From NCBI GenBank assembly GCA_032821775.1, contig JAVLRN010000017.1:479180-543179 (forward strand): a DNA stretch of 64,000 nucleotides, read 5' to 3'. Source of the DNA: Sanguinoderma infundibulare (Eukaryota; Basidiomycota; Agaricomycetes; Polyporales; Polyporaceae). This document shows positions 51,136 to 64,000 of this stretch, in pieces. The notes below the pieces were generated by a model that was not told the DNA's origin, did not search any database, and was given only the letters and a program-made list of their open reading frames with translations. The first letter of the stretch is position 1. Each line of letters starts with the position of its first letter. A program made the translations under genes and the position numbers.

Positions 51136-51229
51136 GCACTACAACATGCATAAACCACAGATGAAGGGGGTGCTAGAGTAGGCGGGGTCAGGGTTAGGGT
51201 AGGTCAATGTTAGGACCCCCTTGGTGAAA

Positions 51230-52069: not shown

Positions 52070-53173
52070 ATGCCGTCCAAAGGCAAAGGAAAAAAGACGG
52101 AGGGGACGGCGGTGAGTGGATCGGCTATTATCAGGGTTGTGGCATTGACTAAATATATTATTGTGTTGTGACAGGATGAGGGCAAGGTACGCTAGAGACG
52201 GATGTGTGCTAGGTGAGATGGGCTAACGTATTGACAGGTGTCCGGTGTGCGGATGCCGAAGCTGAAGGAGGGGGAGACGGCTCCGCATCCGCAGGAGCTG
52301 GCAATCCAGGCGCGTCAGAAGGAGGAGGACAAGGCGTTCCTGGGCAAGTGCCACCTCGACATCCTGACGGAGCCGAAGGGGGTGAAGTACCAGTGGGGGA
52401 CGTGGAACAACCGGGGGGTTGTGCAAGCGTCGGTTGCGAGGCTGGCGCGGGCATTCGACACGGAAGGTAAGCACCCGAACACGGCGCCGATGTTTGTGCA
52501 GGTGCGGGTCGAGGACCTGGTGGAGGGTACGTACTTGAAGAAGGGCGAGGAGGCTGTTCCGTGGGAGGAGCTCCCCGAGCTGAAGTTCAAGGAGCGGGAG
52601 GGCGGGGAGAAGATCGTGCTCGAATTCTTCAGTGGGCAGCACCGGATGCGGGCGGCAGAGATGTGGAAGACGCGGCTGGAGAAGGAGCGGGAGAAGAAGG
52701 CTGAGGGGGAGCAGCGGGTTGCGAGCAAGCTTGTGAACGGGGGCGGGGGGTCGAAGAAGCAGGTTGAGGAGCTGGAGGAGCTTCGGCAGGCGTTGGAGAT
52801 TGCGGATGGGAAGATTGAGAATGCGGGACAGTGGCTGCTACACTTGTTCATCGAAGGTGCGTGGTTGAGTGATGTGGATGTGAATTGTGCTGATATGTTG
52901 TGTGGATGTGTGACCATTGCAGCGTACTGCCCTCCGTCGTTGTGCCGGTACTTGTCGCAAAACGAGTACCTGCCGAGTCTTTGGGCGACGCTTGAGGAGC
53001 GGCTGTTTAGCTATCTTGCGTTGATGCAGGCGAACCTTGCGGAGTGGAAGGAGGCGCACCCTGACGGCGGGGAGCTGACGCCGTACTCGCTGGACTGGAG
53101 TGCGGTTGTCTTGCGGCCTGTGCTGATGGCGGCGCAGCAGTCGTCGTTAGGGTTAGGGTTAGGGAGGAGATGA
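52070..53173 (+). pseudogene. Unknown gene truncated at a former chromosome end (ParB-like GQHR motif)
   Basis: Exons 52070-52111, 52175-52186, 52238-52856 and 52923 onwards join in frame, with introns of 63, 51 and 66 nt. The protein starts MPSKGKGKKTEG and has HLDILTEPKGVKYQWGTWNN, FVQVRVEDLVEG and EFFSGQHRMRAAEMW; GQHRMRAA resembles the GxHRxxA motif of ParB/sulfiredoxin-like folds. A charged linker and an all-helical region (YLPSLWATLEERLFSYLALMQ) follow. From 53147 the frame is three TTAGGG units, read as LGLGLG, then RR and a TGA inside the retroelement 3' end. The natural C-terminus is therefore lost. Function unknown; the ParB link is a motif-level guess. Confidence 0.7.
53147..53164 (+). 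repeat. Interstitial telomeric repeat (3 x TTAGGG)
   Basis: Exactly three TTAGGG units join the broken gene (ending at 53146) to retroelement copy 1. Confidence 0.9.
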
Positions 53174-53629
53174 ACACCACGAACGACTATGCTACGAAAC
53201 GGTTGCCAACGGGGGACTTGGTAGTACCACGTCCCAGCCCCATTTCGCTTATAAGCTCGTCAGGGCAACCTTAGTATTCCCGTGTTTGCACGGGTCGCAC
53301 GAACTCTCATTGGATACAGACAAATCGTACCATGGTCCGTGCGCAATTGCAAATCGAATGCGCAACGATTGCGTGATGCCGGCCGAAAAGCCGGCATGCC
53401 GAAGCACATCATTACAACGTCAACGGCTCTCAAAATAGCCTGGCCGGGCCGAGGACTAATAATGCTTACATTTGATGGCCGAACAACCGATCAGCACGTG
53501 TTCGTGATATTAATCTACTCCCATCACATCCGGACCGTAGTCCGGGAAAGATAAGATAAGATGTATCACGTGTGCCGGGTCATGTGAACCTTCGCAAGCG
53601 GCGCTTACGGTTGCGAAGGTTCACGCGAC
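53165..53629 (-). mobile_element. Penelope-like retroelement, copy 1 (3' fragment, 465 bp)
   Basis: The fragment begins AGGAGATGAACACCACG as in the other three copies and is truncated on its telomere side at 53629. It differs from the other copies in several bases, and its terminal hairpin is rearranged into a perfect 14-bp stem (53584-53597 with 53611-53624). No coding part remains. Confidence 0.85.
53201..53270 (-). ncRNA. Hammerhead ribozyme-like motif, copy 1
   Basis: The minus strand has stem I GGTTGCC/GGCAACC, core CTGACGA, stem II GCT-TATA-AGC, core GAAA, stem III, then the TT site. One base change (CCCCA at 53238-53242) makes the first stem III pair a G-U wobble. Confidence 0.62.
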
Positions 53630-53647: not shown

Positions 53648-53683
53648 AGGAGATGAACACCACGAACGACTATGCTACGAAAC

Positions 53684-53753
53684 GGTTGCCAACGGGGGAC
53701 TTGGTAGTACCACGTCCCAGCCCCGTTTCGCTTATAAGCTCGTCAGGGCAACC
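53684..53753 (-). ncRNA. Hammerhead ribozyme-like motif, copy 2
   Basis: Same core and stems as in copy 3, with no change in the conserved positions. Confidence 0.65.
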
Positions 53754-54065
53754 TTAGTATTCCCGTGTTTGCACGGGTCGCACGAACTCTTATTGGATAC
53801 GGACAAATCGTACCATGGTCCGTGCGCAATTGCAAATCGAATGCGCAACGATTGCGTGATGCCGACGGGAAAGTCGACATGCCGAGGCACGCCATAAGAC
53901 GTCAACGGCTCTCAAAATAGCGTCAGACGGGCCGACAACTAATAATGCTTACGTTTGATGGCCGGACAACCGATCAGCACGTGTTCGTGATGTTGATCTC
54001 TTCCCATCACATCCGGACCGTAGTCCGGGAAAGATAAGATAAGATGCATCACGTGGTGCCTTATC

Positions 54066-54117
54066 ACATGATCCTTCGCAACGTAAGCGCCGCTTGCGGC
54101 GCTTACGGATCACATGA
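54066..54117. repeat. Strong hairpin in the retroelement 3' region, copy 2
   Basis: GTAAGCGCCGC and GCGGCGCTTAC form an 11-bp stem with a 2-nt loop, extended by an outer ATGATCC/GGATCACAT stem. The equivalents are 58620-58671 and 63693-63744. Confidence 0.8.
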
Positions 54118-54189
54118 CCACCGAAACAGACTAAAGGCGCTTAACCTTACATAATGAGCACGTGCGATTAAGCGCGCGCTTATCTCAAC

Positions 54190-54335
54190 GGGTACTTCCG
54201 TTAGGGTTCGGTTAGAGTCTGGGTTCGGGTTAGGGTCCGGTTAGGGTTAGCTGATGATAAACATAAGCGTTGCGCATATATTCAGCGATTAAGCCGAGTA
54301 ACAAGACTCACGGTTAGGGTTTGGGTTAGACCGCA
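54190..54335 (+). repeat. Internal degenerate telomere-like tract, copy 2
   Basis: TTAGGGTTCGGTTAGAG, GGGTTAGGGTCCGG and GGTTAGGGTTTGGGTTAG lie within the 3' untranslated region. The same tract is at 58755-58885 in copy 3 and is where copy 4 passes into the terminal telomere. Confidence 0.75.
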
Positions 54336-55068
54336 CCGGCCCCAGTGAGCGGGGCCGTGAGTAATGTTGATGTGCAATAAAGTGCTTGCTACCGAGGAGT
54401 TGCAAGAGGTTAGTATGGTATAGGCGTTGAAGACAGTCAACGGGGGATCAGGTTATCACGACCGGCATATAAGTGACTTCCCACGTGCCACTAGGCCGGT
54501 ACGATATGTGACAACACATTTCAGATACGACGAGAAGACCGTATTTCCTCGAGCCAATGCCCAAGTAGACAGCAACGGTTGCCGTCCGGGTCCGCTCCCC
54601 CAAGCAGTGAGCTTACGAAGTATAAAGTCCAGTGCGCGTAGCCGAAGCAGTCGCGTCCGTGATCACGGATCAGTTACTTGTTATCGCCCACGTCACGCAT
54701 GTGCTCAAACACGGATTATATCATCGCGCGTGACATGTTTACCGCTCGCTCTCGATTAAATCATCAAGTCGTATACGGTGACTTTGAACAGTACGATCGA
54801 AGCACGAACTGGCCATTCCTTCTACTTCCGAAGACCCAATCGTCCGCCAGGCACGGCCGAAACGGGGTCCAATCCATAAAAGTAACAATTCGCTCCGCCC
54901 AGTGCCAAACCGGGGGTCGTTGGGTACAGTTTTCCCATTCGCTGGGGACAATGGTATAGCCCATACGGGACCATCCGGGGCGAGCCCCGGCCACCAGTGC
55001 CATTCCCGGCGCCCGCTTGAAGTGTTACGATCTGCGGGTCCGGACTGTTCATTCGCTTGTGTCTTCGC

Positions 55069-58000
55069 CTAACCAAATAGGCCTCTTCCGAGACCAGGCG
55101 AACGCCTTCCAGAGGGGTCATAATTGATGTAGACCACATCCTCAGTGTCATCCGATGCGGTAGGTAGTGTGTTAACCGCTGGCTGAGGTGCAGAGCTGGA
55201 AGGGGTAGGTGCGGGTGCTGGAGCCGGTATAACCGGGTCGGGATCTCGTTCCGACAGCACCCGTTCGTCTAACTTCTGGAACACCATCTTTTTCCAAAGA
55301 CTTGTAAGGTCGAACATGTTTTTCGTGCGCTTTCGCGACACTAAAACTCGACTGTCTAACATACTGATTTTACGGACGTCGGGAATCCAAAGACTCCCGG
55401 ACGGTGGAGTGAGCACCTCCGTTAAGAAGCGCCCCTCCGTGTCCGCAAGCGACTTTCCAAGGGTCGCCGGCGACGGCCGTGGCCAATCCGCCAGGGAGAT
55501 TCCAGGGCGGGGAAGACCGAGATCTGCATTAACATGCCAATCTCTCCAGTAATTAAGAATGGTTGCTCCAAACTCGGTAGCATTGAACCAATTCCAGGCT
55601 GTATTGTATTCGGACTTGAGGACCAAGACGCTTTCGGTTTCGCGATCGTTATTCTCACGTAAACGATTATCCCAGCGCTCGGTGAGGTGTTTCCTCGTCC
55701 AGTTTTCCAATAAGTCTTGCGGGTAGCCACGCTTTACGTACAGACATACCAAGTCATGCACGCTCTCCAAGTAGACGGGAAAGGTACTACTAAGCGTTGC
55801 GAGCCGCGACATCTCACCGGTAAAAGTACCGCGTTTAACATCGAGGGGATGGTGAGATATCCAAGGAATTCGCTCAAGGTGGTTCTTCGCCTTGCGGTAC
55901 GGACGCCACTCGAGGGACGAGCCATTGCCCCCGAAGTAGAACGTTGCGTCTAAAAAGTTACACCGCAAATCTGACGATTCCCATAAGATTTGACAGCCAT
56001 CGAATTTAATTTTACCGTCGAGATATTGTTGAGCTGCATCGCTACTCTTAGCGCGCACAATACCGAAACAGTCATCGATGTAACGACCGTAGAACGCTAC
56101 GCGATCATCGGTCATTATATGACTAAGCTTTTCGAAATGCCACCCGAACAGGTTAGCAAGATCGGGAGAATCCGCGACGCCCATAGCTAGGCCTCGCTTT
56201 TGCTTGAATAATTTATTGTCATATTTGCATATCAAATCAGTGTTGCCAACCTCAAGGCACTTACGGAAGATATCAGCGATCGTGCGGAGCTCAGCGCCTG
56301 CAGAGCCCTTTACGATGCCGTCGACTTCATACGTAGCGTTGAATTCTAACGGATCGAACGTGAAGTCCAGCCACATCTGGTACACAATATCCAGACATTG
56401 ATCGAGGGGGACGTTCGGGTAGAATGCGACTACGTCGCCGGTGACAAAGTACCACCGTTCGCCGTAAGGCGCGAGAGGAAGTTTAAGCTTGCTCAATTTT
56501 AACACCAGGTCTTTGGTTCCATGTATAATGGTTGGCGCCGCTCTAATGAGGGGTTTGAGTTGCTTAGACACGAATTTTGCTGCAGGCCCGAAAACGACGG
56601 AATGACATGGTATAATGGGCCGGAAGCCCGTCGGTTTCTTATGAATTTTCGGTATGCCGTAAAATTCCGGGTAATGGAATTTCGTTCCGGCCGCCGGGAA
56701 CTTGCTGCGCAAGAACTTGTCGACTTTAAGTGAGGCCAGCTCGATTGTTTTCTCATCGATCTGAGATGCTATACGATCGATACGTGTCTGTTTATCTCTA
56801 AATATTGCGTTTGCCATTATTTCACTAATAGGTTGATAATCCTTATCGTTACTTAATAGCTTTAGAGTTTGTGTATGTAACCAGGTACGCTCGGACACCG
56901 CGAGTCCCAAGTTCTTGTCGGTTAGAGTGACTACATAGTTTCGCTCATCAAGAAAGGCTCTTATTTCGGCGGGGTTCGGGCTGAGCGTTTTATAGGTAGC
57001 CTTTCCCTTTTCTTCGTCCGGGATTTTGGCGATCGTGTCATTAACGAAGCGCCTCCCACGGTCGATGCCTTTTTCGAGCCATAGTGGTAAAGTCGGTGGC
57101 GGCTTGCCCGAAGGGTCGCGCACCACGTCATAATCTGGATCATACTTACGGTCAGGTCCCTCGGTAAACGCAAAGAATATGCGCCATCGCAGACGGCGTT
57201 CGAAATCTTTGAATGCATCCAGTATCAAACTAGAATTGCGAGGGGAATAGTACATGTATTTAAGTCCAACCGAGAGCGAGTATGCGATGCGATCAGGTAC
57301 AACTACACCAGGCGACGTATGAACGTACGCCGCGAACTGGGACGCCCCGATAACACCGATCGGGGTGTGCGCGAGCACGTAATCAAGAGCCTGTGTGTGT
57401 GTCATAGTTAGTATCCTGTCCGGAAGGGTAGAGGGGCGACCATATACGTACTGGCTTTCGCCTTGCCCTTGCCCTTGGCCTTGTCGGCCTTTCCGGCGTC
57501 GGTGGACTGTTTGCCCGGCTTGCCTTTCGGCTTCTTCTCCTCCTTGTTCTTGCCCGACTTCTTGGGCTGCTGCTGAGTGGTGGAGGAGGAGGCGGTTTTC
57601 CCCGCCTTGCCGTTCGACTTGTTCGAGGCCTTCTGCTTCTTGTCGCTTGCGAGCGTGAGCTAAAGAAAGGTCCTTGATCAGCGGGGTAAGTTCGGAACGG
57701 ATCCGGGGACTTGCCTTTTTGATCTTGGCCTCGAGCGCCTTCACTTTGCCTGACACGGCCTTGTCGATTGACGATTGAATGGACGGCCCAGGGCGCGTCG
57801 CATCGGCCATGACGGTGTCGGCGTCTTTCTGAATCTCCGTCTTCTTCTCGATCTTCTGGCGCATGGCTGTGGCGCGATTCTCCGTGATGGAGATGAGGCG
57901 CTGCGCGATCCAAGGGAGATCGGACATGAGATCCGCGTACTCCTTCTCAACGGAGGCGGAGTTTCTCCAGCCAATCGGCTTCAAGTCGGTGTAACCCTCA

Positions 58001-58164
58001 TAGCGACCGTCGTCGACCCAAAGGTCGGTCCCGTCGACTATGACGTCGCCGTTACGGGGGTCGCGAGAGATGTACCGATATGAATAAATAACCTCTTTGT
58101 TGTTCTCGAGCAACTCGAAGAACTTTTGATGGGCGGGCTCCTTGAGCACCGGCCAGAGGCTATC
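55069..58164 (-). CDS. Reverse transcriptase of Penelope-like element, N-terminally truncated
   Basis: The frame is open from the truncation point at 58164 (LWPVLKEPAHQ) to the stop near 55069 and lacks roughly the first 170 residues of copy 3. It contains KIHKKPTGFRPIIPC, TGDVVAFYPNVPLDQ, KRGLAMGVADSPDLANLF and YGRYIDDCFG, the finger and palm motifs A-C of Penelope-type reverse transcriptases. No GIY-YIG nuclease follows the thumb; the C-terminus is a short Pro/Ala-rich tail (VIPAPAPAPTPSSS). The two introns of copy 3 are also present, with the same GCAAGT and TACTAAC signals. Catalytic residues are intact, but no start codon is available, so translation would need fusion to upstream sequence. 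Confidence 0.88.
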   Translation of the reverse strand, partial: DSLWPVLKEPAHQKFFELLENNKEVIYSYRYISRDPRNGDVIVDGTDLWVDDGRYEGYTDLKPIGWRNSASVEKEYADLMSDLPWIAQRLISITENRATAMRQKIEKKTEIQKDADTVMADATRPGPSIQSSIDKAVSGKVKALEAKIKKASPRIRSELTPLIKDLSLAHARKRQEAEGLEQVERQGGENRLLLHHSAAAQEVGQEQGGEEAERQAGQTVHRRRKGRQGQGQGQGESQYVYGRPSTLPDRILTMTHTQALDYVLAHTPIGVIGASQFAAYVHTSPGVVVPDRIAYSLSVGLKYMYYSPRNSSLILDAFKDFERRLRWRIFFAFTEGPDRKYDPDYDVVRDPSGKPPPTLPLWLEKGIDRGRRFVNDTIAKIPDEEKGKATYKTLSPNPAEIRAFLDERNYVVTLTDKNLGLAVSERTWLHTQTLKLLSNDKDYQPISEIMANAIFRDKQTRIDRIASQIDEKTIELASLKVDKFLRSKFPAAGTKFHYPEFYGIPKIHKKPTGFRPIIPCHSVVFGPAAKFVSKQLKPLIRAAPTIIHGTKDLVLKLSKLKLPLAPYGERWYFVTGDVVAFYPNVPLDQCLDIVYQMWLDFTFDPLEFNATYEVDGIVKGSAGAELRTIADIFRKCLEVGNTDLICKYDNKLFKQKRGLAMGVADSPDLANLFGWHFEKLSHIMTDDRVAFYGRYIDDCFGIVRAKSSDAAQQYLDGKIKFDGCQILWESSDLRCNFLDATFYFGGNGSSLEWRPYRKAKNHLERIPWISHHPLDVKRGTFTGEMSRLATLSSTFPVYLESVHDLVCLYVKRGYPQDLLENWTRKHLTERWDNRLRENNDRETESVLVLKSEYNTAWNWFNATEFGATILNYWRDWHVNADLGLPRPGISLADWPRPSPATLGKSLADTEGRFLTEVLTPPSGSLWIPDVRKISMLDSRVLVSRKRTKNMFDLTSLWKKMVFQKLDERVLSERDPDPVIPAPAPAPTPSSSAPQPAVNTLPTASDDTEDVVYINYDPSGRRSPGLGRGLFG

Positions 58165-58200
58165 TTAGGGTTAGGGTTAGGGTTAGGGTTAGGGTTAGGG
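58165..58200 (+). repeat. Interstitial telomeric repeat (6 x TTAGGG)
   Basis: Six exact units cap the 5'-truncated copy 2 and directly precede the 3' end of copy 3. Confidence 0.95.
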
Positions 58201-58236
58201 AGGAGATGAACACCACGAACGACTATGCTACGAAAC

Positions 58237-58306
58237 GGTTGCCAACGGGGGACTTGGTAGTACCACGTCCCAGCCCCGTTTCGCTTATAAGCTCGTCAGG
58301 GCAACC
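58237..58306 (-). ncRNA. Hammerhead ribozyme-like motif, copy 3
   Basis: Reading the minus strand: GGTTGCC (58306-58300), CTGACGA (58299-58293), GCTTATAAGC (58292-58283), GAAA (58282-58279), CGGGG...CCCCG, TT (58245-58244), GGCAACC (58243-58237). This satisfies the CUGANGA...GAAA...UH hammerhead consensus in a type I arrangement, with a 7-bp stem I, 3-bp stem II with UAUA loop and a long stem III. Predicted cleavage is after 58244. Confidence 0.7.
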
Positions 58307-58619
58307 TTAGTATTCCCGTGTTTGCACGGGTCGCACGGACTTTTATTGGATACGGACAAATCGTACCATGGTCCGTGCGCAATTGCAAATTGAATGCGCA
58401 ACGATTGCGTGATGCCGACGGGAAAGTCGACATGCCGAAGCACGCCATAAGACGTCAACGGCTCTCAAAATAGCGTCGGACGGGCCGACAACCAATAATG
58501 CTTACGTTTTGATGGCCGGACAACCGATCAGCACGTGTTCGTGATGTTGATCTCTTCCTATCACATCCGGACCGTAGTTCGGGAAAGATAAGATAAGATG
58601 CATCACGTGTGTGCCTTAT

Positions 58620-58671
58620 CATGTGATCCTTCGCAACGTAAGCGCCGCTTGCGGCGCTTACGGATCACATG
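58620..58671. repeat. Strong hairpin in the retroelement 3' region, copy 3
   Basis: CATGTGATCC pairs with GGATCACATG, and an inner 11-bp stem is closed by a TT loop, with an 8-nt bulge (TTCGCAAC) on one side. Confidence 0.8.
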
Positions 58672-59626
58672 ACCGCCGAGACAGACTAAAGGCGCTTAAC
58701 CTTACATAATGAGCACGTGCGATTAAGCGCGCGCTTATCTCAACGGGTACTTCCGTTAGGGTTTGGTTTAGAGTCTGGGTTCGGGTTAGGGTCCGGTTAG
58801 GGTTAGCTAATGATAAACATAAGCGTTGCGCATATATTCAGTGGTTAAGCCGAGTAACAAGACTCACGGTTAGGGTTTGGGTTAGACCGCGCCGGCCCCA
58901 GTGAGCGGGGCCGTGAGTAATGTTGATGTGCAATAAAGTGCTTGCTACCGAGGAGTTTGCAAGAGGTTAGTATGGTATAGGTTTTGAAGACAATTTACGG
59001 GGGATCAGGTCATCACGACCGGCATATAAGTGACTTCCCACTTGCCGCTAGGCCGGTACAGTGTGTGACAACACATTTCGGATGCGACGAGAAGACCGTA
59101 TTTCCTCGAGCCAATGCCCAAGTGGACAGCAACGGTTGCCGTCCGGGTCCGCTCCCCCAAGCAGTGAGCTTACGAAGTATAAAGTCCAGTGCGCGTAGCC
59201 GAAGCAGTCGCGTCCGTGATCACGGATCAGTTACTTGTTATCGCCCACGCCACGCATGTGCTCAAACACGGATTATATCATCGCGCGTGACATGTTTACC
59301 GCTCGCTCTCGATTAAATCATCAAGTCGTATACGGTGACGTTGAACAGTACGATCGAGGCACGAACTGGCCATTCCTTCTACTTCCGAAGACCCAATCGT
59401 CCGCCAGGCACGGCCGAAACGGGGTCCAATCCATAAAAGTAACAGTTCGCTCCGCCCGGTGCCAAACCGGGGGTCGTTGGGTACAGTTTTCCCATTCGCT
59501 GGGGGCAATGGTATAGCCCATACGGGACCATCCGGGGCGAACCCCGGCCACCAGTGCCATTCCCGGCGCCCGCTTGACGTGTTACGATCTGCGGGTCCGG
59601 ACTGTTCATTCGCTTGTGTCTTCGCC

Positions 59627-62600
59627 TTAACCAAATAGGCCTCTTCCGAGACCAGGCGAACGCCTTCCAGAAGGGTCGTAATTGACGTAGACCACATCTT
59701 CAGTGTCATCCGATGCGGTAGGTAGTGTGTTAACCGCTGGCTGAAGTGCAGAGCTGGAAGGGGTAGGTGCGGGTGCTGGAGCCGGTATAACCGGGTCAGG
59801 ATCTCGTTCCGACAGCACCCGTTCGTCTAACTTCTGGAACACCATCTTTTTCCAAAGACTTGTGAGGTCGAACATGTTTTTCGTGCGCTTTCGCGACACT
59901 AAAACTCGACTGTCTAACATACTGATTTTACGGATGTCGGGAATCCAAAGACTCCCGGACGGTGGAGTGAGCACCTCCGTTAAGAAGCGCCCCTCCGTGT
60001 CCGCCAGCGACTTTCCAAGGGTCGCTGGCGACGGCCGTGGCCAATCCGCCAGGGAGATTCCAGGGCGGGGAAGACCGAGATCTGCATTAACATGCCAATC
60101 TCTCCAGTAATTAAGAATGGTTGCTCCAAACTCGGTAGCATTGAACCAATTCCAGGCTGTATTGTACTCGGACTTGAGGACCAAAACGCTTTCGGTTTCG
60201 CGGTCGTTGTTCTCACGTAAACGATTGTCCCAGCGTTCGGTAAGGTGTTTCCTCGTCCAATTTTCCAATAAGTCTTGCGGGTAGCCACGCTTTACGTACA
60301 GACATACCAAGTCGTGTACGCTCTCCAAGTAGACGGGGAATTGACTACTAAGCGTTGCGAGCCGCGACATCTCACCGGTAAAGGTACCGCGTTTAACATC
60401 GAGAGGATGGTGAGATATCCAAGGAATTCGCTCAAGGTGGTTCTTCGCCTTGCGGAACGGACGCCATTCGAGGGACGAGCCATTGCCCCCGAAGAAGAAC
60501 GTCGCGTCTAAAAAGTTACACCGCAATTCGGACGATTCCCACAAGATTTGACAGCCATCGAATTTAATTTTACTGTCGAGATATTGTTGAGCTGCATCGC
60601 TACTCTTAGCGCGTACAATACCGAAACAGTCATCGATGTAACGACCGTAGAAAGCTACGCGATCATCGGTTGTTATATGACTAAGCTTTTCGAAATGCCA
60701 ACCGAAAAGGTTAGCAAGATCGGGAGAATCCGCGACACCCATAGCAAGGCCTCGCTTTTGCTTATATAATTTGTTGTCATATTTGCATATCAAGTCAGTG
60801 TTGCCAACCTCAAGGCACTTACGGAAGATATCAGAGATCGTGCGGAGCTCAGCGCCTGCGGAGCCCTTTACGATGCCGTCGACTTCATACGTAGCATTGA
60901 ATTCTAACGGATCAAACGTGAAGTCTAGCCACATCTGGTACACAATATCCAGACATTGATCGAGGGGGACGTTTGGGTAGAATGCGACTACGTCGCCGGT
61001 GACAAAGTACCACCGTTCGCCGTAAGGCGCGAGAGGAAGTTTAAGCTTGCTCAATTTTAACACCAGGTCTTTGGTTCCATGAATAATGGTTGGCGCCGCT
61101 CGAATGAGGGGTTTGAGTTGCTTGGACACGAATTTTGCTGCAGGCCCGAAAACGACGGAATGACATGGTATAATAGGCCGGAAGCCCGTCGGTTTCTTAT
61201 GAATTTTCGGTATGCCGTAAAATTCCGGGTAATGGAATTTCTCTCCGGCCGCCGGGAACTTGCTGCGCAAGAACTTGTCGACTTTTAATGAGGCCAGCTC
61301 GATTGTTTTCTCATCGATTTGAGATGCTATACGATCGATACGTGTCTGTTTATCTCTAAATATTGCGTTTGCCATTATTTCACTAATAGGTTGATAGTCC
61401 TTATCGTTACTTAATAGCTTTAGAGTTTGTGTATGTAACCAGGTACGCTCGGACACCGCGAGTCCCAAGTTCTTGTCGGTTAGAGTGACTACATAGTTTC
61501 GCTCTTCAAGAAAGGCTCTTATTTCGGCGGGGTTCGGGCTGAGCGTTTTATAGGTAGCCGTTCCCTTTTCTTCGTTCGGGATTTTGGCGATCGTGTCATT
61601 AACGAAGCGCCTCCCACGGTCGATGCCTTTTTCGAGCCATAGCGGTAAAGTTGGCGGTGGCTTACCCGAAGGGTCGCGCACCACGTCATAATCTGGGTCA
61701 TACTTACGGTCAGGTCCCTCGGTAAACGCAAAGAATATACGCCATCGCAGACGGCGTTCGAAATCTTTGAATGCATCCAGTATCAAACTAGAATTGCGAG
61801 GGGAATAGTACATATATTTAAGTCCGACGGAGAGCGAGTATGCGATGCGATTCGGTACAACTACACCAGGCGACGTATGAACGTACGCCGCGAACTGGGA
61901 CGCCCCAATAACACCGATCGGGGTGTGCGCGAGCACGTAATCAAGAGCCTGTGTGTGTGTCATAGTTAGTATCCGGTCCGGAAGGGTAGAGGGGCGACCA
62001 TATACGTACTGGCTTTCGCCTTGCCCTTGCCCTTGGCCTTGTCGGCTTTTCCGGCGTCGGCGGACTGTTTGCCCGGCTTGCCTTTCGGCTTCTTCTCCTC
62101 CTTGTTCTTGCCCGACTTCTTGGGCTGCTGCTGAGTGGTGGAGGAGGAGGCGGTTTTCCCCGCCTTGCCGTTCGACTTGTTCGAGGCTTTCTGCTTCTTG
62201 TCGCTTGCGAGCGTGAGCTAGAGAAAGATCTTTGATCAGCGGGGTAAGCTCGGAACGAATCCGTGGACTTGCCTTTTTGATCTTAGCCTCGAGCGCCTTA
62301 ACCTTGCCTGACACGGCCTTGTCGATTGACGATTGAATGGACGGCCCAGGGCGCGTCGCATCGGCCATGACGGTGTCGGCGTCTTTCTGGATCTCCGTCT
62401 TCTTCTCGATCTTCTGGCGCATGGCTGTAGCGCGATTCTCCGTGATGGAGATGAGGCGCTGCGCGATCCAAGGGAGATCGGACATGAGATCCGCGTACTC
62501 CTTCTCGACTGAGGCGGAGTTTCTCCAGCCAATCGGCTTCAAGTCGGTGTAACCCTCATAGCGACCGTCGTCGACCCAAAGGTCGGTCCCGTCGACTATG

Positions 62601-63223
62601 ACGTCGCCGTTACGGGGGTCGCGAGAGATGTACCGATATGAATAAATAACCTCTTTGTTGTTCTCGAGAAGCTCGAAGAACTTTTGATGGGCGGGCTCCT
62701 TGAGCACCGGCCAGAGGCTATCCCGGCTTAGCTGGGACCCCAGCCACGTCACCTCCTCAGTGAGGAAGGCGATGTTGGTCGCGTTGATGGCGGCCTGGGC
62801 GGTCTGTACCGCGCTCGAGATGGCGGTCTCGTGCTGCGTAAACAGTCCGCCCGCCTTGAACTCAGAAACAGCCTGCAACGTAGGCGTTTTGAGAACGAGG
62901 TGGGCTGGGGTTGTGCCGGCCGTTTGATGGGCCTCTGCCTTGCGAAGGGCAGACCGGACGCTCTCTCGCTTTTCAGCGAGACTCGCGATCTGGCGGATCG
63001 GAGCTTCCAGGGCTTGACGGTAGTTGAGCGGGACGCACAGGGCGACATCCGCAACCGTCGCGGCGTTGTTCAGCGCAATGCGCCGAGTGAACGCGGCCGC
63101 ATCTGTGGCGTTGTTGGACCGCCCCGCATGGGCTGCCTCGACCACAGTCGCCAGACCCGGGCTGACAGCCCGAGTCATCGCGGAACCGAAGGAGATGGAA
63201 GAAGAAGAGGCAGCGAAAGACAT
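59627..63223 (-). CDS. Reverse transcriptase of Penelope-like element (GIY-YIG-deficient)
   Basis: ATG at 63223 (MSFAASSSSISFG) is preferred to the in-frame ATG at 63289, because the latter lies in copy 4 and is reached only through telomeric sequence. The N-terminal 350 residues are Ala-rich and helical. A Lys-rich linker follows once a 55-nt GC-AG intron (62218-62272) and a 50-nt intron with a TACTAAC branch site (61949-61998) are removed; unspliced, the frame stays open for 1198 codons. The RT core has YGIPKIHKKPTGFRPI, TGDVVAFYPN, RGLAMGVADSPDLAN and YIDD (about 60630-60641). No nuclease domain follows. It copies its RNA probably from telomeric 3' ends. All catalytic motifs look intact. 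Confidence 0.92.
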   Translation of the reverse strand: MSFAASSSSISFGSAMTRAVSPGLATVVEAAHAGRSNNATDAAAFTRRIALNNAATVADVALCVPLNYRQALEAPIRQIASLAEKRESVRSALRKAEAHQTAGTTPAHLVLKTPTLQAVSEFKAGGLFTQHETAISSAVQTAQAAINATNIAFLTEEVTWLGSQLSRDSLWPVLKEPAHQKFFELLENNKEVIYSYRYISRDPRNGDVIVDGTDLWVDDGRYEGYTDLKPIGWRNSASVEKEYADLMSDLPWIAQRLISITENRATAMRQKIEKKTEIQKDADTVMADATRPGPSIQSSIDKAVSGKVKALEAKIKKASPRIRSELTPLIKDLSLAHARKRQEAESLEQVERQGGENRLLLHHSAAAQEVGQEQGGEEAERQAGQTVRRRRKSRQGQGQGQGESQYVYGRPSTLPDRILTMTHTQALDYVLAHTPIGVIGASQFAAYVHTSPGVVVPNRIAYSLSVGLKYMYYSPRNSSLILDAFKDFERRLRWRIFFAFTEGPDRKYDPDYDVVRDPSGKPPPTLPLWLEKGIDRGRRFVNDTIAKIPNEEKGTATYKTLSPNPAEIRAFLEERNYVVTLTDKNLGLAVSERTWLHTQTLKLLSNDKDYQPISEIMANAIFRDKQTRIDRIASQIDEKTIELASLKVDKFLRSKFPAAGEKFHYPEFYGIPKIHKKPTGFRPIIPCHSVVFGPAAKFVSKQLKPLIRAAPTIIHGTKDLVLKLSKLKLPLAPYGERWYFVTGDVVAFYPNVPLDQCLDIVYQMWLDFTFDPLEFNATYEVDGIVKGSAGAELRTISDIFRKCLEVGNTDLICKYDNKLYKQKRGLAMGVADSPDLANLFGWHFEKLSHITTDDRVAFYGRYIDDCFGIVRAKSSDAAQQYLDSKIKFDGCQILWESSELRCNFLDATFFFGGNGSSLEWRPFRKAKNHLERIPWISHHPLDVKRGTFTGEMSRLATLSSQFPVYLESVHDLVCLYVKRGYPQDLLENWTRKHLTERWDNRLRENNDRETESVLVLKSEYNTAWNWFNATEFGATILNYWRDWHVNADLGLPRPGISLADWPRPSPATLGKSLADTEGRFLTEVLTPPSGSLWIPDIRKISMLDSRVLVSRKRTKNMFDLTSLWKKMVFQKLDERVLSERDPDPVIPAPAPAPTPSSSALQPAVNTLPTASDDTEDVVYVNYDPSGRRSPGLGRGLFG
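61949..61998 (-). other. Predicted intron in retroelement ORF (TACTAAC branch)
   Basis: The minus strand reads GTCGCC...GATACTAACTATGACACACACACAG, followed by the ALDYVLAH exon. The branch site is ideal; the donor is weak. A GTACGT 11 nt upstream is stronger but does not keep the Lys-rich frame. Confidence 0.55.
62218..62272 (-). other. Predicted GC-AG intron in retroelement ORF
   Basis: AAG|GCAAGT is the standard GC-donor consensus, with a CTGAT branch and a TCTAG acceptor. Splicing moves the frame into a Lys-rich linker. Confidence 0.5.
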
Positions 63224-63263
63224 GGTTAATGTCAGAGTCTCCGGGTGAAGGATGTGTGGATAA

Positions 63264-63273
63264 AGGGTTAGGG
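63264..63273 (+). repeat. Residual telomeric repeat (AGGGTTAGGG)
   Basis: About one and two-thirds units separate copy 3 from copy 4. Confidence 0.85.
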
Positions 63274-63309
63274 AGGAGATGAACACCACGAACGACTATG
63301 CTACGAAAC

Positions 63310-63379
63310 GGTTGCCAACGGGGGACTTGGTAGTACCACGTCCCAGCCCCGTTTCGCTTATAAGCTCGTCAGGGCAACC
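63310..63379 (-). ncRNA. Hammerhead ribozyme-like motif, copy 4
   Basis: Identical to copy 3. Its position 94 nt upstream of the reverse transcriptase ATG means that cleavage after 63317 of a leftward transcript would create the 5' end of the copy 3 mRNA. Confidence 0.68.
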
Positions 63380-63692
63380 TTAGTATTCCCGTGTTTGCAC
63401 GGGTCGCACGGACTTTTATTGGATACGGACAAATCGTACCATGGTCCGTGCGCAATTGCAAATTGAATGCGCAACGATTGCGTGATGCCGACGGGAAAGT
63501 CGACATGCCGAAGCACGCCATAAGACGTCAACGGCTCTCAAAATAGCGTCGGACGGGCCGACAACCAATAATGCTTACGTTTTGATGGCCGGACAACCGA
63601 TCAGCACGTGTTCGTGATGTTGATCTCTTCCTATCACATCCGGACCGTAGTTCGGGAAAGATAAGATAAGATGCATCACGTGTGTGCCTTAT

Positions 63693-63744
63693 CATGTGAT
63701 CCTTCGCAACGTAAGCGCCGCTTGCGGCGCTTACGGATCACATG
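63693..63744. repeat. Strong hairpin in the retroelement 3' region, copy 4
   Basis: Identical to 58620-58671. Confidence 0.8.
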
Positions 63745-63869
63745 ACCGCCGAGACAGACTAAAGGCGCTTAACCTTACATAATGAGCACGTGCGATTAAG
63801 CGCGCGCTTATCTCAACGGGTACTTCCGTTAGGGTTTGGTTTAGAGTCTGGGTTCGGGTTAGGGTCCGG

Positions 63870-64000
63870 TTAGGGTTAGGGTTAGGGTTAGGGTTAGGGT
63901 TAGGGTTAGGGTTAGGGTTAGGGTTAGGGTTAGGGTTAGGGTTAGGGTTAGGGTTAGGGTTAGGGTTAGGGTTAGGTTAGGGTTAGGGTTAGGGTTAGGG
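63870..64000 (+). repeat. Terminal telomeric array (TTAGGG)n
   Basis: About 22 TTAGGG units run to the end of the window, with one shortened TTAGG unit near 63970. The G-rich strand running 5'->3' to the right marks a right chromosome end. Confidence 0.97.

What the first reader, a model, noticed from the sequence alone, without database searches (positions are those of the whole stretch)
58237..58306. Hammerhead ribozyme motif in every copy of a fungal telomeric retroelement
Seen: on the minus strand each of the four 3' ends (53201-53270, 53684-53753, 58237-58306, 63310-63379) has CTGACGA, GAAA and a TT cleavage site, held by stems GGTTGCC/GGCAACC, GCT/AGC and CGGGG/CCCCG. This is the complete hammerhead consensus. 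Known: hammerheads have been reported in the terminal repeats of Penelope-like elements. Inference: in the copy 4-copy 3 tandem, cleavage at the upstream motif would set the mRNA 5' end and at the downstream one the 3' end, giving a 5073-nt unit RNA. The short stem II and U at the cleavage position may make it slow.
Basis: partly seen in the sequence, partly recalled or inferred. Interest (0 to 1): 0.88.

Follow-up and report, generated by a model that had tools for sequence, protein, structure and literature searches.

The report
Hammerhead ribozyme in fungal telomere retroelement
A retroelement at the chromosome ends of a fungus carries a complete self-cutting RNA motif (a hammerhead ribozyme) near its 3' end; this is a known kind of pairing, but the genome's own record of insertions argues that the cut RNA, as a straight molecule, is not what gets inserted.

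Summary
In detail: four complete type I hammerheads on the minus strand; 1500 simulated windows gave one loose and no strict hit. Rfam does not recognise them. The assembly holds 55 telomere-primed copies in two subfamilies (36 A, 19 B). Of the 51 that span the motif, 49 keep the core and 51 keep stem I. Between A and B the catalytic strands are nearly unchanged, while distal stem III is replaced but its base still pairs. The host is a telomere-targeted Penelope-like element.

The processing model is partly supported. All 55 insertions start 42-43 nt beyond the cut, and none of the 52 known 5' ends lies at it, so linear cut RNA is not the usual template. In 5 of 5 full-length loci the cut lies 93-94 nt before the ORF's AUG, the first AUG after the cut. 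The 6 full-length units share one minimal link, run on into a next unit, and are flanked by identical repeats. This suits a rejoined or circular template, but 4 of 10 other adjacent pairs are also near-identical, so DNA recombination remains possible.

New member of a known kind; cleavage untested.

The parts
53201..53270 (-). hammerhead motif of copy 1 (U.G in stem III)
   Evidence: descriptor
53684..53753 (-). hammerhead motif of copy 2
   Evidence: descriptor
58237..58306 (-). hammerhead motif of copy 3; predicted cut between 58244 and 58243
63310..63379 (-). hammerhead motif of copy 4; predicted cut between 63317 and 63316, 93 nt before the AUG at 63223
53165..53610 (-). copy 1, cut short at its 5' side
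   Evidence: blastn to the unit
53648..58164 (-). copy 2, cut short at its 5' side
58165..58200 (+). (TTAGGG)6 on which copy 3 begins
58201..63273 (-). copy 3, full unit of 5073 nt including the minimal link
59627..63223 (-). ORF, 1198 aa from the first AUG; reverse transcriptase in the C-terminal part
63264..63273 (+). minimal telomeric link AGGGTTAGGG between copies 3 and 4
63274..63879 (-). copy 4, about 606 nt (terminal repeat), then telomere
   Evidence: the 5' end is approximate because telomere-like repeats run into the telomere
58755..58806 (+). telomere-like tract inside the terminal repeat

Best explanation
The motif is a type I hammerhead ribozyme in the terminal repeat of a telomere-targeted Penelope-like element without a recognised endonuclease, kept by selection as a catalyst. 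Transcripts that run from one copy into the next pass two hammerheads. A cut at the upstream one would free an RNA whose leader is 93-94 nt long with no AUG before the ORF's own. For insertion the template must carry an uncut, or cut and rejoined, hammerhead followed by CUAACCC: the TTAGGG end of the chromosome pairs there, and reverse transcription starts 35-36 nt 3' of the ribozyme. Shown: the motif, its conservation, the uniform telomeric 3' junction, the absence of cut-site junctions, the leader geometry. Inferred: cutting in the cell, the mRNA role, the pairing step.
For: Four motifs in the window, chance small. 49 of 51 spanning copies keep the core and 51 of 51 stem I. A against B: one difference in the strand from GAAA through stem II and CTGACGA to the end of stem I, none in the other stem I strand, about half identity with indels in distal stem III; pair 40-73 is G-C in A and A-U in B. 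55 of 55 copies begin at one position, after TTAGGG in 35 of 36 A copies (TTAGAG in one) and TTAGG in 19 of 19 B copies. The cut lies 93, 94, 94, 94, 94 nt before the AUG in five loci of two subfamilies, with 3-11 AUGs upstream of the cut and none between. The predicted fold of 5 of 6 distinct B sequences is the hammerhead junction.
Against: No RNA or cleavage data. Rfam does not recognise it. None of the 13 distinct A sequences with flanks has the hammerhead as its predicted best fold; for the commonest one a competing fold is 4.1 kcal/mol better than the constrained hammerhead. Stem I never varies, so it gives no covariation; only one pair has changes on both sides, which 481 of 500 shuffles match, though the covariation score is reached by 4 of 500. 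9 of 51 copies have a 2-bp stem II, among them the full-length B element. An AUG-free 94 nt is not rare by itself. In a lizard Penelope-like element core mutants still insert in vitro and no reads end at the cut (PMC11167929, passages).
Confidence: 0.55

Rival explanations
1. The fold is only a 3'-terminal handle: it presents CUAACCC to the chromosome end and binds the reverse transcriptase, as proposed for rotifer Terminons; cutting is vestigial.
For: 55 of 55 insertions used a template uncut at the 3' motif. Terminon proposal in PMC6431247 (passages). Two very short copies (A 36 nt, B 32-35 nt) stop at the outer base of stem I, as if reverse transcriptase met a folded stem.
Against: A handle would not need CTGANGA, GAAA and the UH cleavage site, which are kept between A and B while distal stem III is not; nor does it explain the constant distance to the AUG.
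Confidence: 0.25
2. The cut unit RNA is rejoined into a circle, and the circle is the template of full-length insertion: priming at the internal CUAACCC copies a full turn and more, giving repeat-ORF-repeat with identical repeats.
For: 6 of 6 full-length units have the same minimal link and run on for at least 589 nt of a next unit. The repeats flanking each of them show 0 differences, against 13-19 between the four full-length A elements. The retrozyme model predicts solo, monomeric and multimeric cDNA from a cut, circularised RNA (PMC4918200, passages).
Against: Of 10 other adjacent pairs with comparable repeats, 6 differ by 15-18 but 4 by 0-1 (C12 1, C67 0, C3 0 and 0). Mosaic differences in the C3 and C4 arrays show DNA recombination. 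Multimeric transcripts or end-to-end template jumping would give the same pattern.
Confidence: 0.2
3. The identical repeats come from DNA recombination between copies or from telomeric DNA circles; the hammerhead has nothing to do with them.
For: The C3 and C4 truncated arrays show recombination-like mosaics and identical tandem units; the C2 full units are identical over 5071 nt.
Against: Neighbours about 4.5-5 kb apart at C14 and C17 that lack the minimal link differ by 17 and 15.
Confidence: 0.45
4. One reading: linear RNA cut at both hammerheads is the template.
For: Cut-to-cut length is 5073 nt in the window.
Against: None of 55 3' ends and none of the 52 known 5' ends lies at the cut; the 3' cut removes CUAACCC from the 3' end.
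Confidence: 0.05

Closest known systems
Endonuclease-deficient, telomere-associated Penelope-like elements of fungi (PMC3846280, passages; clade name Coprina recalled; the 2007 source paper is not held)
   Same: Telomerase-like reverse transcriptase, location at chromosome ends, priming on the chromosome end, telomeric repeats added to truncated 5' ends
   Different: No difference found in the features tested; the passages read do not speak of a hammerhead in the fungal ones
Terminons of bdelloid rotifers (PMC6431247, passages)
   Same: 3'-terminal hammerhead directly followed by reverse-complement telomeric repeats; head-to-tail arrays; mostly 5'-truncated copies
   Different: 5-kb unit with one ORF instead of up to 40 kb with many; fungal host
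Hammerheads of animal Penelope-like elements (PMC7761336, PMC6155905, passages)
   Same: Type I hammerhead in the terminal repeats
   Different: Those are minimal, mostly without helix III, and may work as dimers; here stem III is long, so one motif could fold alone. My recollection of the 2014 abstract (paper not held) is that fungal ones are of this stable kind
Plant retrozymes (PMC4918200, passages)
   Same: A hammerhead in each of two direct repeats; solo, monomeric and multimeric copies
   Different: Non-coding, small, not telomere-primed; circular RNA is shown there and not here

Membership tests
Hammerhead ribozyme, type I | CUGANGA, GAAA and NUH in a three-way junction with stem I open | tested here: met
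   49 of 51 copies keep the core
Hammerhead ribozyme, type I | Match to an Rfam hammerhead model at its threshold | tested here: not met
   this is a database criterion, not a biochemical one
Hammerhead ribozyme, type I | Stems kept through compensatory change | tested here: inconclusive
   one pair with changes on both sides; stem I invariant
Hammerhead ribozyme, type I | Self-cleavage | not testable with these tools
   needs a bench assay
Telomeric endonuclease-deficient Penelope-like element | Telomerase-like reverse transcriptase | tested here: met
   ranks 1-13 are telomerases (best E 1.8e-9, TM about 0.3); model pLDDT 69. By sequence: no Pfam match for the window's protein, one relative (P0084) matches RVT_1 just above its cut-off; no PDB sequence match. 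No tree was built
Telomeric endonuclease-deficient Penelope-like element | No GIY-YIG endonuclease | tested here: inconclusive
   none found, but the reverse transcriptase was missed there too
Telomeric endonuclease-deficient Penelope-like element | 3' ends joined to telomeric G-strand repeats at chromosome ends | tested here: met
   55 of 55 copies
Terminon | Giant element with several accessory ORFs | tested here: not met
   unit of about 5 kb with one ORF
Terminon | 3'-terminal hammerhead followed by reverse-complement telomeric repeats | tested here: met
Retrozyme | Non-coding | tested here: not met
   ORF of about 1200 aa
Retrozyme | Circular unit RNA | not testable with these tools
   no RNA data in hand

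The most novel reading that the evidence does not exclude
The hammerhead yields a self-cut, rejoined circular unit RNA, and the telomerase-like reverse transcriptase copies this circle for more than one turn straight onto the TTAGGG end, so that a selfish element extends chromosome ends by rolling-circle reverse transcription.
Probability: 0.2. Interest if true: 0.8.

Novelty: new member of a known kind. Interest (0 to 1): 0.5.

Why it matters
The role of hammerheads in Penelope-like elements is called a mystery in a 2020 review (PMC7761336, passages). Here 55 insertions with their chromosome-end junctions separate models: they argue against linear cut RNA as template and make cut-for-messenger and cut-and-rejoin testable with one fungal culture and simple RNA assays.

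Tried and rejected
Chance motif: rejected. Rfam as arbiter: it misses the motif, perhaps because of the long stem III insert, so I do not count it against the reading. Relatives in other species: none confirmed in viral contigs, bacterial and archaeal genome contigs or plasmids; protein relatives exist, but I had no DNA for them, so the cross-species test is open. The competing fold of subfamily A as a switch: 9-bp helix, reached by 119 of 5000 shuffles; in B 6 bp, 2423 of 5000; left as a remark. The short copies as proof of cleavage: rejected, since two stop at the base of stem I, 7 nt short of the cut (B: 7-10 nt). Print: searches showed no paper on a hammerhead in a fungal telomeric element; the lists (30 of 199; 15 of 69) were cut, and the 2007, 2014 and 2017 source papers are not held, so this is no claim of novelty.

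Full report
Observation. On the minus strand GGTTGCC-CTGACGA-GCT-TATA-AGC-GAAA-CGGGG...CCCCG-TT-GGCAACC stands at the four stated places. Stem I (7 bp) is the open one, stem II has 3 bp and a UAUA loop, and stem III closes about 22 nt that can fold further. The descriptor finds nothing else in the window; simulated windows gave 0 hits in 100 and 1 loose and 0 strict hits in 1500. Rfam does not call it.

Census. The window is the end of contig 17 of a 48.9-Mb, 87-contig assembly. Two 3'-end patterns give 36 subfamily A copies (34 exact, 2 with one mismatch; I dropped 4 hits with 2-3 mismatches as chance) and 19 subfamily B copies (the tool calls such counts lower bounds). All 55 lie in the stretches fetched (listed). 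The core pattern gives 52 hits; the fetched copies account for that number: 51 that span the motif plus one truncated inside it; the other 3 of 55 are too short. Of the 51, 42 have the full consensus, 7 an intact core with 2-bp stem II, and 2 have G8 changed to A; stem I is intact in 51.

Conservation. A and B are 76-79% alike here. In one A against one B copy, the strand from GAAA through stem II and CTGACGA to the end of stem I has one difference (third pair of stem II), the other stem I strand none; distal stem III is about half alike, with indels. On 17 of the 19 distinct sequences 96.9% of cells pair, against 29-55% for slid versions; pair 40-73 is G-C in 11 and A-U in 6. Against: stem I never varies; 6 of 17 lack the third stem II pair and 2 of 17 the C-G pair next to the cut; one pair with a double change is matched by 481 of 500 shuffles, while the covariation score is reached by 4 of 500. 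So this is constraint on the catalytic strands plus one compensated pair, not broad covariation.

Fold. 5 of 6 distinct B sequences fold by energy as the hammerhead junction, 0 of 13 distinct A sequences do when flanks are included. For the commonest A sequence the hammerhead-like fold is best up to 10 nt of 3' flank without upstream flank; with 14 nt, or with both flanks, a fold pairing GCGAAACGG with CCGUUUCGU wins, by 4.1 kcal/mol on the 94-nt sequence.

Element. The unit is 5073 nt (A, window copy 3) or 4996 nt (B, contig 4). Its C-terminal 782 aa match 450 proteins, 120 listed. Pfam gives no match for the window's protein; one of four relatives tested matches RVT_1 just above its cut-off. 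The model (pLDDT 69, pTM 0.64) has telomerases as its 13 best PDB matches, with low TM-scores of about 0.3. No endonuclease was found, a weak negative. Five loci hold full units; the ORF is 1194-1203 aa in four and 930 aa in the C18 one.

Junctions. All 55 copies begin at one position, 36 nt (A) or 35 nt (B) 3' of the motif and 43 or 42 nt 3' of the cut; an independent blastn shows no copy that begins elsewhere in the unit. 52 of 55 5' ends are in hand. None of the 52 lies at the cut. 14 of 55 end at about unit position 534-606, in the telomere-like tract, where alignment into telomere blurs the exact place. Four copies end in or beside the motif: A 36 nt, B 32-35 nt, B 80 nt and A about 101 nt; the first two stop at the outer base of stem I.

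Full-length units. Six copies reach the unit's 5' end (C12, C17, C18, two at C2, and the B unit at C4). All six have the same minimal link and are followed by at least 589 nt of a next unit. The repeats that flank each show 0 differences over 555 (A) or 532 (B) nt, while the four full-length A elements differ by 13-19 (all 22 A and 15 B copies long enough were compared, the other 18 are too short). Among 10 other adjacent pairs of one subfamily in that table, 6 differ by 15-18 (C17, C14, C18, C4, first pair of C3, C5) and 4 by 0-1 (C12 8133/8744, C67, two pairs of C3). The C3 and C4 arrays show mosaic differences, a mark of DNA recombination. So the LTR-like identity is real, but its cause is open: rejoined circle, multimeric transcript, template jumping or recombination.

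Leader. In the five loci the upstream cut lies 93, 94, 94, 94 and 94 nt before the ORF's AUG, with no AUG between and 3-11 AUGs in the 547-563 nt before the cut. A and B differ in this leader's letters but not in its length by more than 1 nt.

Mechanism. My reading: a ribozyme that cuts read-through transcripts of telomeric arrays, so that cut RNA serves as messenger, while insertion needs the motif uncut or rejoined, since the CUAACCC landing site lies beyond the cut. The lizard element PAc agrees in part: reverse transcription starts inside the RNA, the hammerhead cuts only with protein, and core mutants still insert (PMC11167929, passages).

Known ground. Telomere-primed endonuclease-less elements of fungi (PMC3846280, passages), Terminons with a 3' hammerhead and telomeric repeats (PMC6431247, passages), hammerheads in Penelope-like elements with role unknown (PMC7761336, PMC6155905, passages), and the retrozyme circle model (PMC4918200, passages) cover the parts. 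The 2007, 2014 and 2017 source papers were not held; what I say of the 2014 abstract is recalled. Hence: new member of a known kind.

Noticed in passing
window 53584-53624: The 5' end of copy 1 carries a 14-nt perfect fold-back (GTGAACCTTCGCAA / TTGCGAAGGTTCAC) just before TTAGGG, as if the cDNA end had primed on itself.
   Followed up: no
window 51162-51210 and ends C1, C2 (both), C3, C12, C19: Another subtelomeric repeat (GAA[CA]GGGGGG..TTGAGTAG..AGGGTTAGGG) abuts the 5' ends of 7 of the 55 copies, each time at AT|GAA and without telomere between; a relative lies in the window.
   Followed up: partly
window 58755-58806: A telomere-like tract inside the terminal repeat is well conserved between A and B and is the commonest place of 5' ends (14 of 55, approximate).
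   Followed up: partly
window 58638-58661: A 24-nt near-perfect inverted repeat (GTAAGCGCCGC TT GCGGCGCTTAC), whose middle part (about 20 nt) also stands in subfamily B.
   Followed up: no
G000 contig 3 left end (L031, L032) and contig 4 right end (L041): Truncated units in tandem with identical break points and mosaic differences, pointing to recombination in telomeric arrays.
   Followed up: partly
contig 2 left end, copy at G000:C2:14351 (L038): One copy changes both sides of the competing helix of subfamily A (C-G to U-A); both are CpG transitions, so mutational decay may explain it.
   Followed up: no
window 59627-63223: The reverse transcriptase of the window escapes Pfam at E <= 10, although relatives carry precomputed PF28514, PF26215 or PF00078 labels in the protein table.
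   Followed up: no
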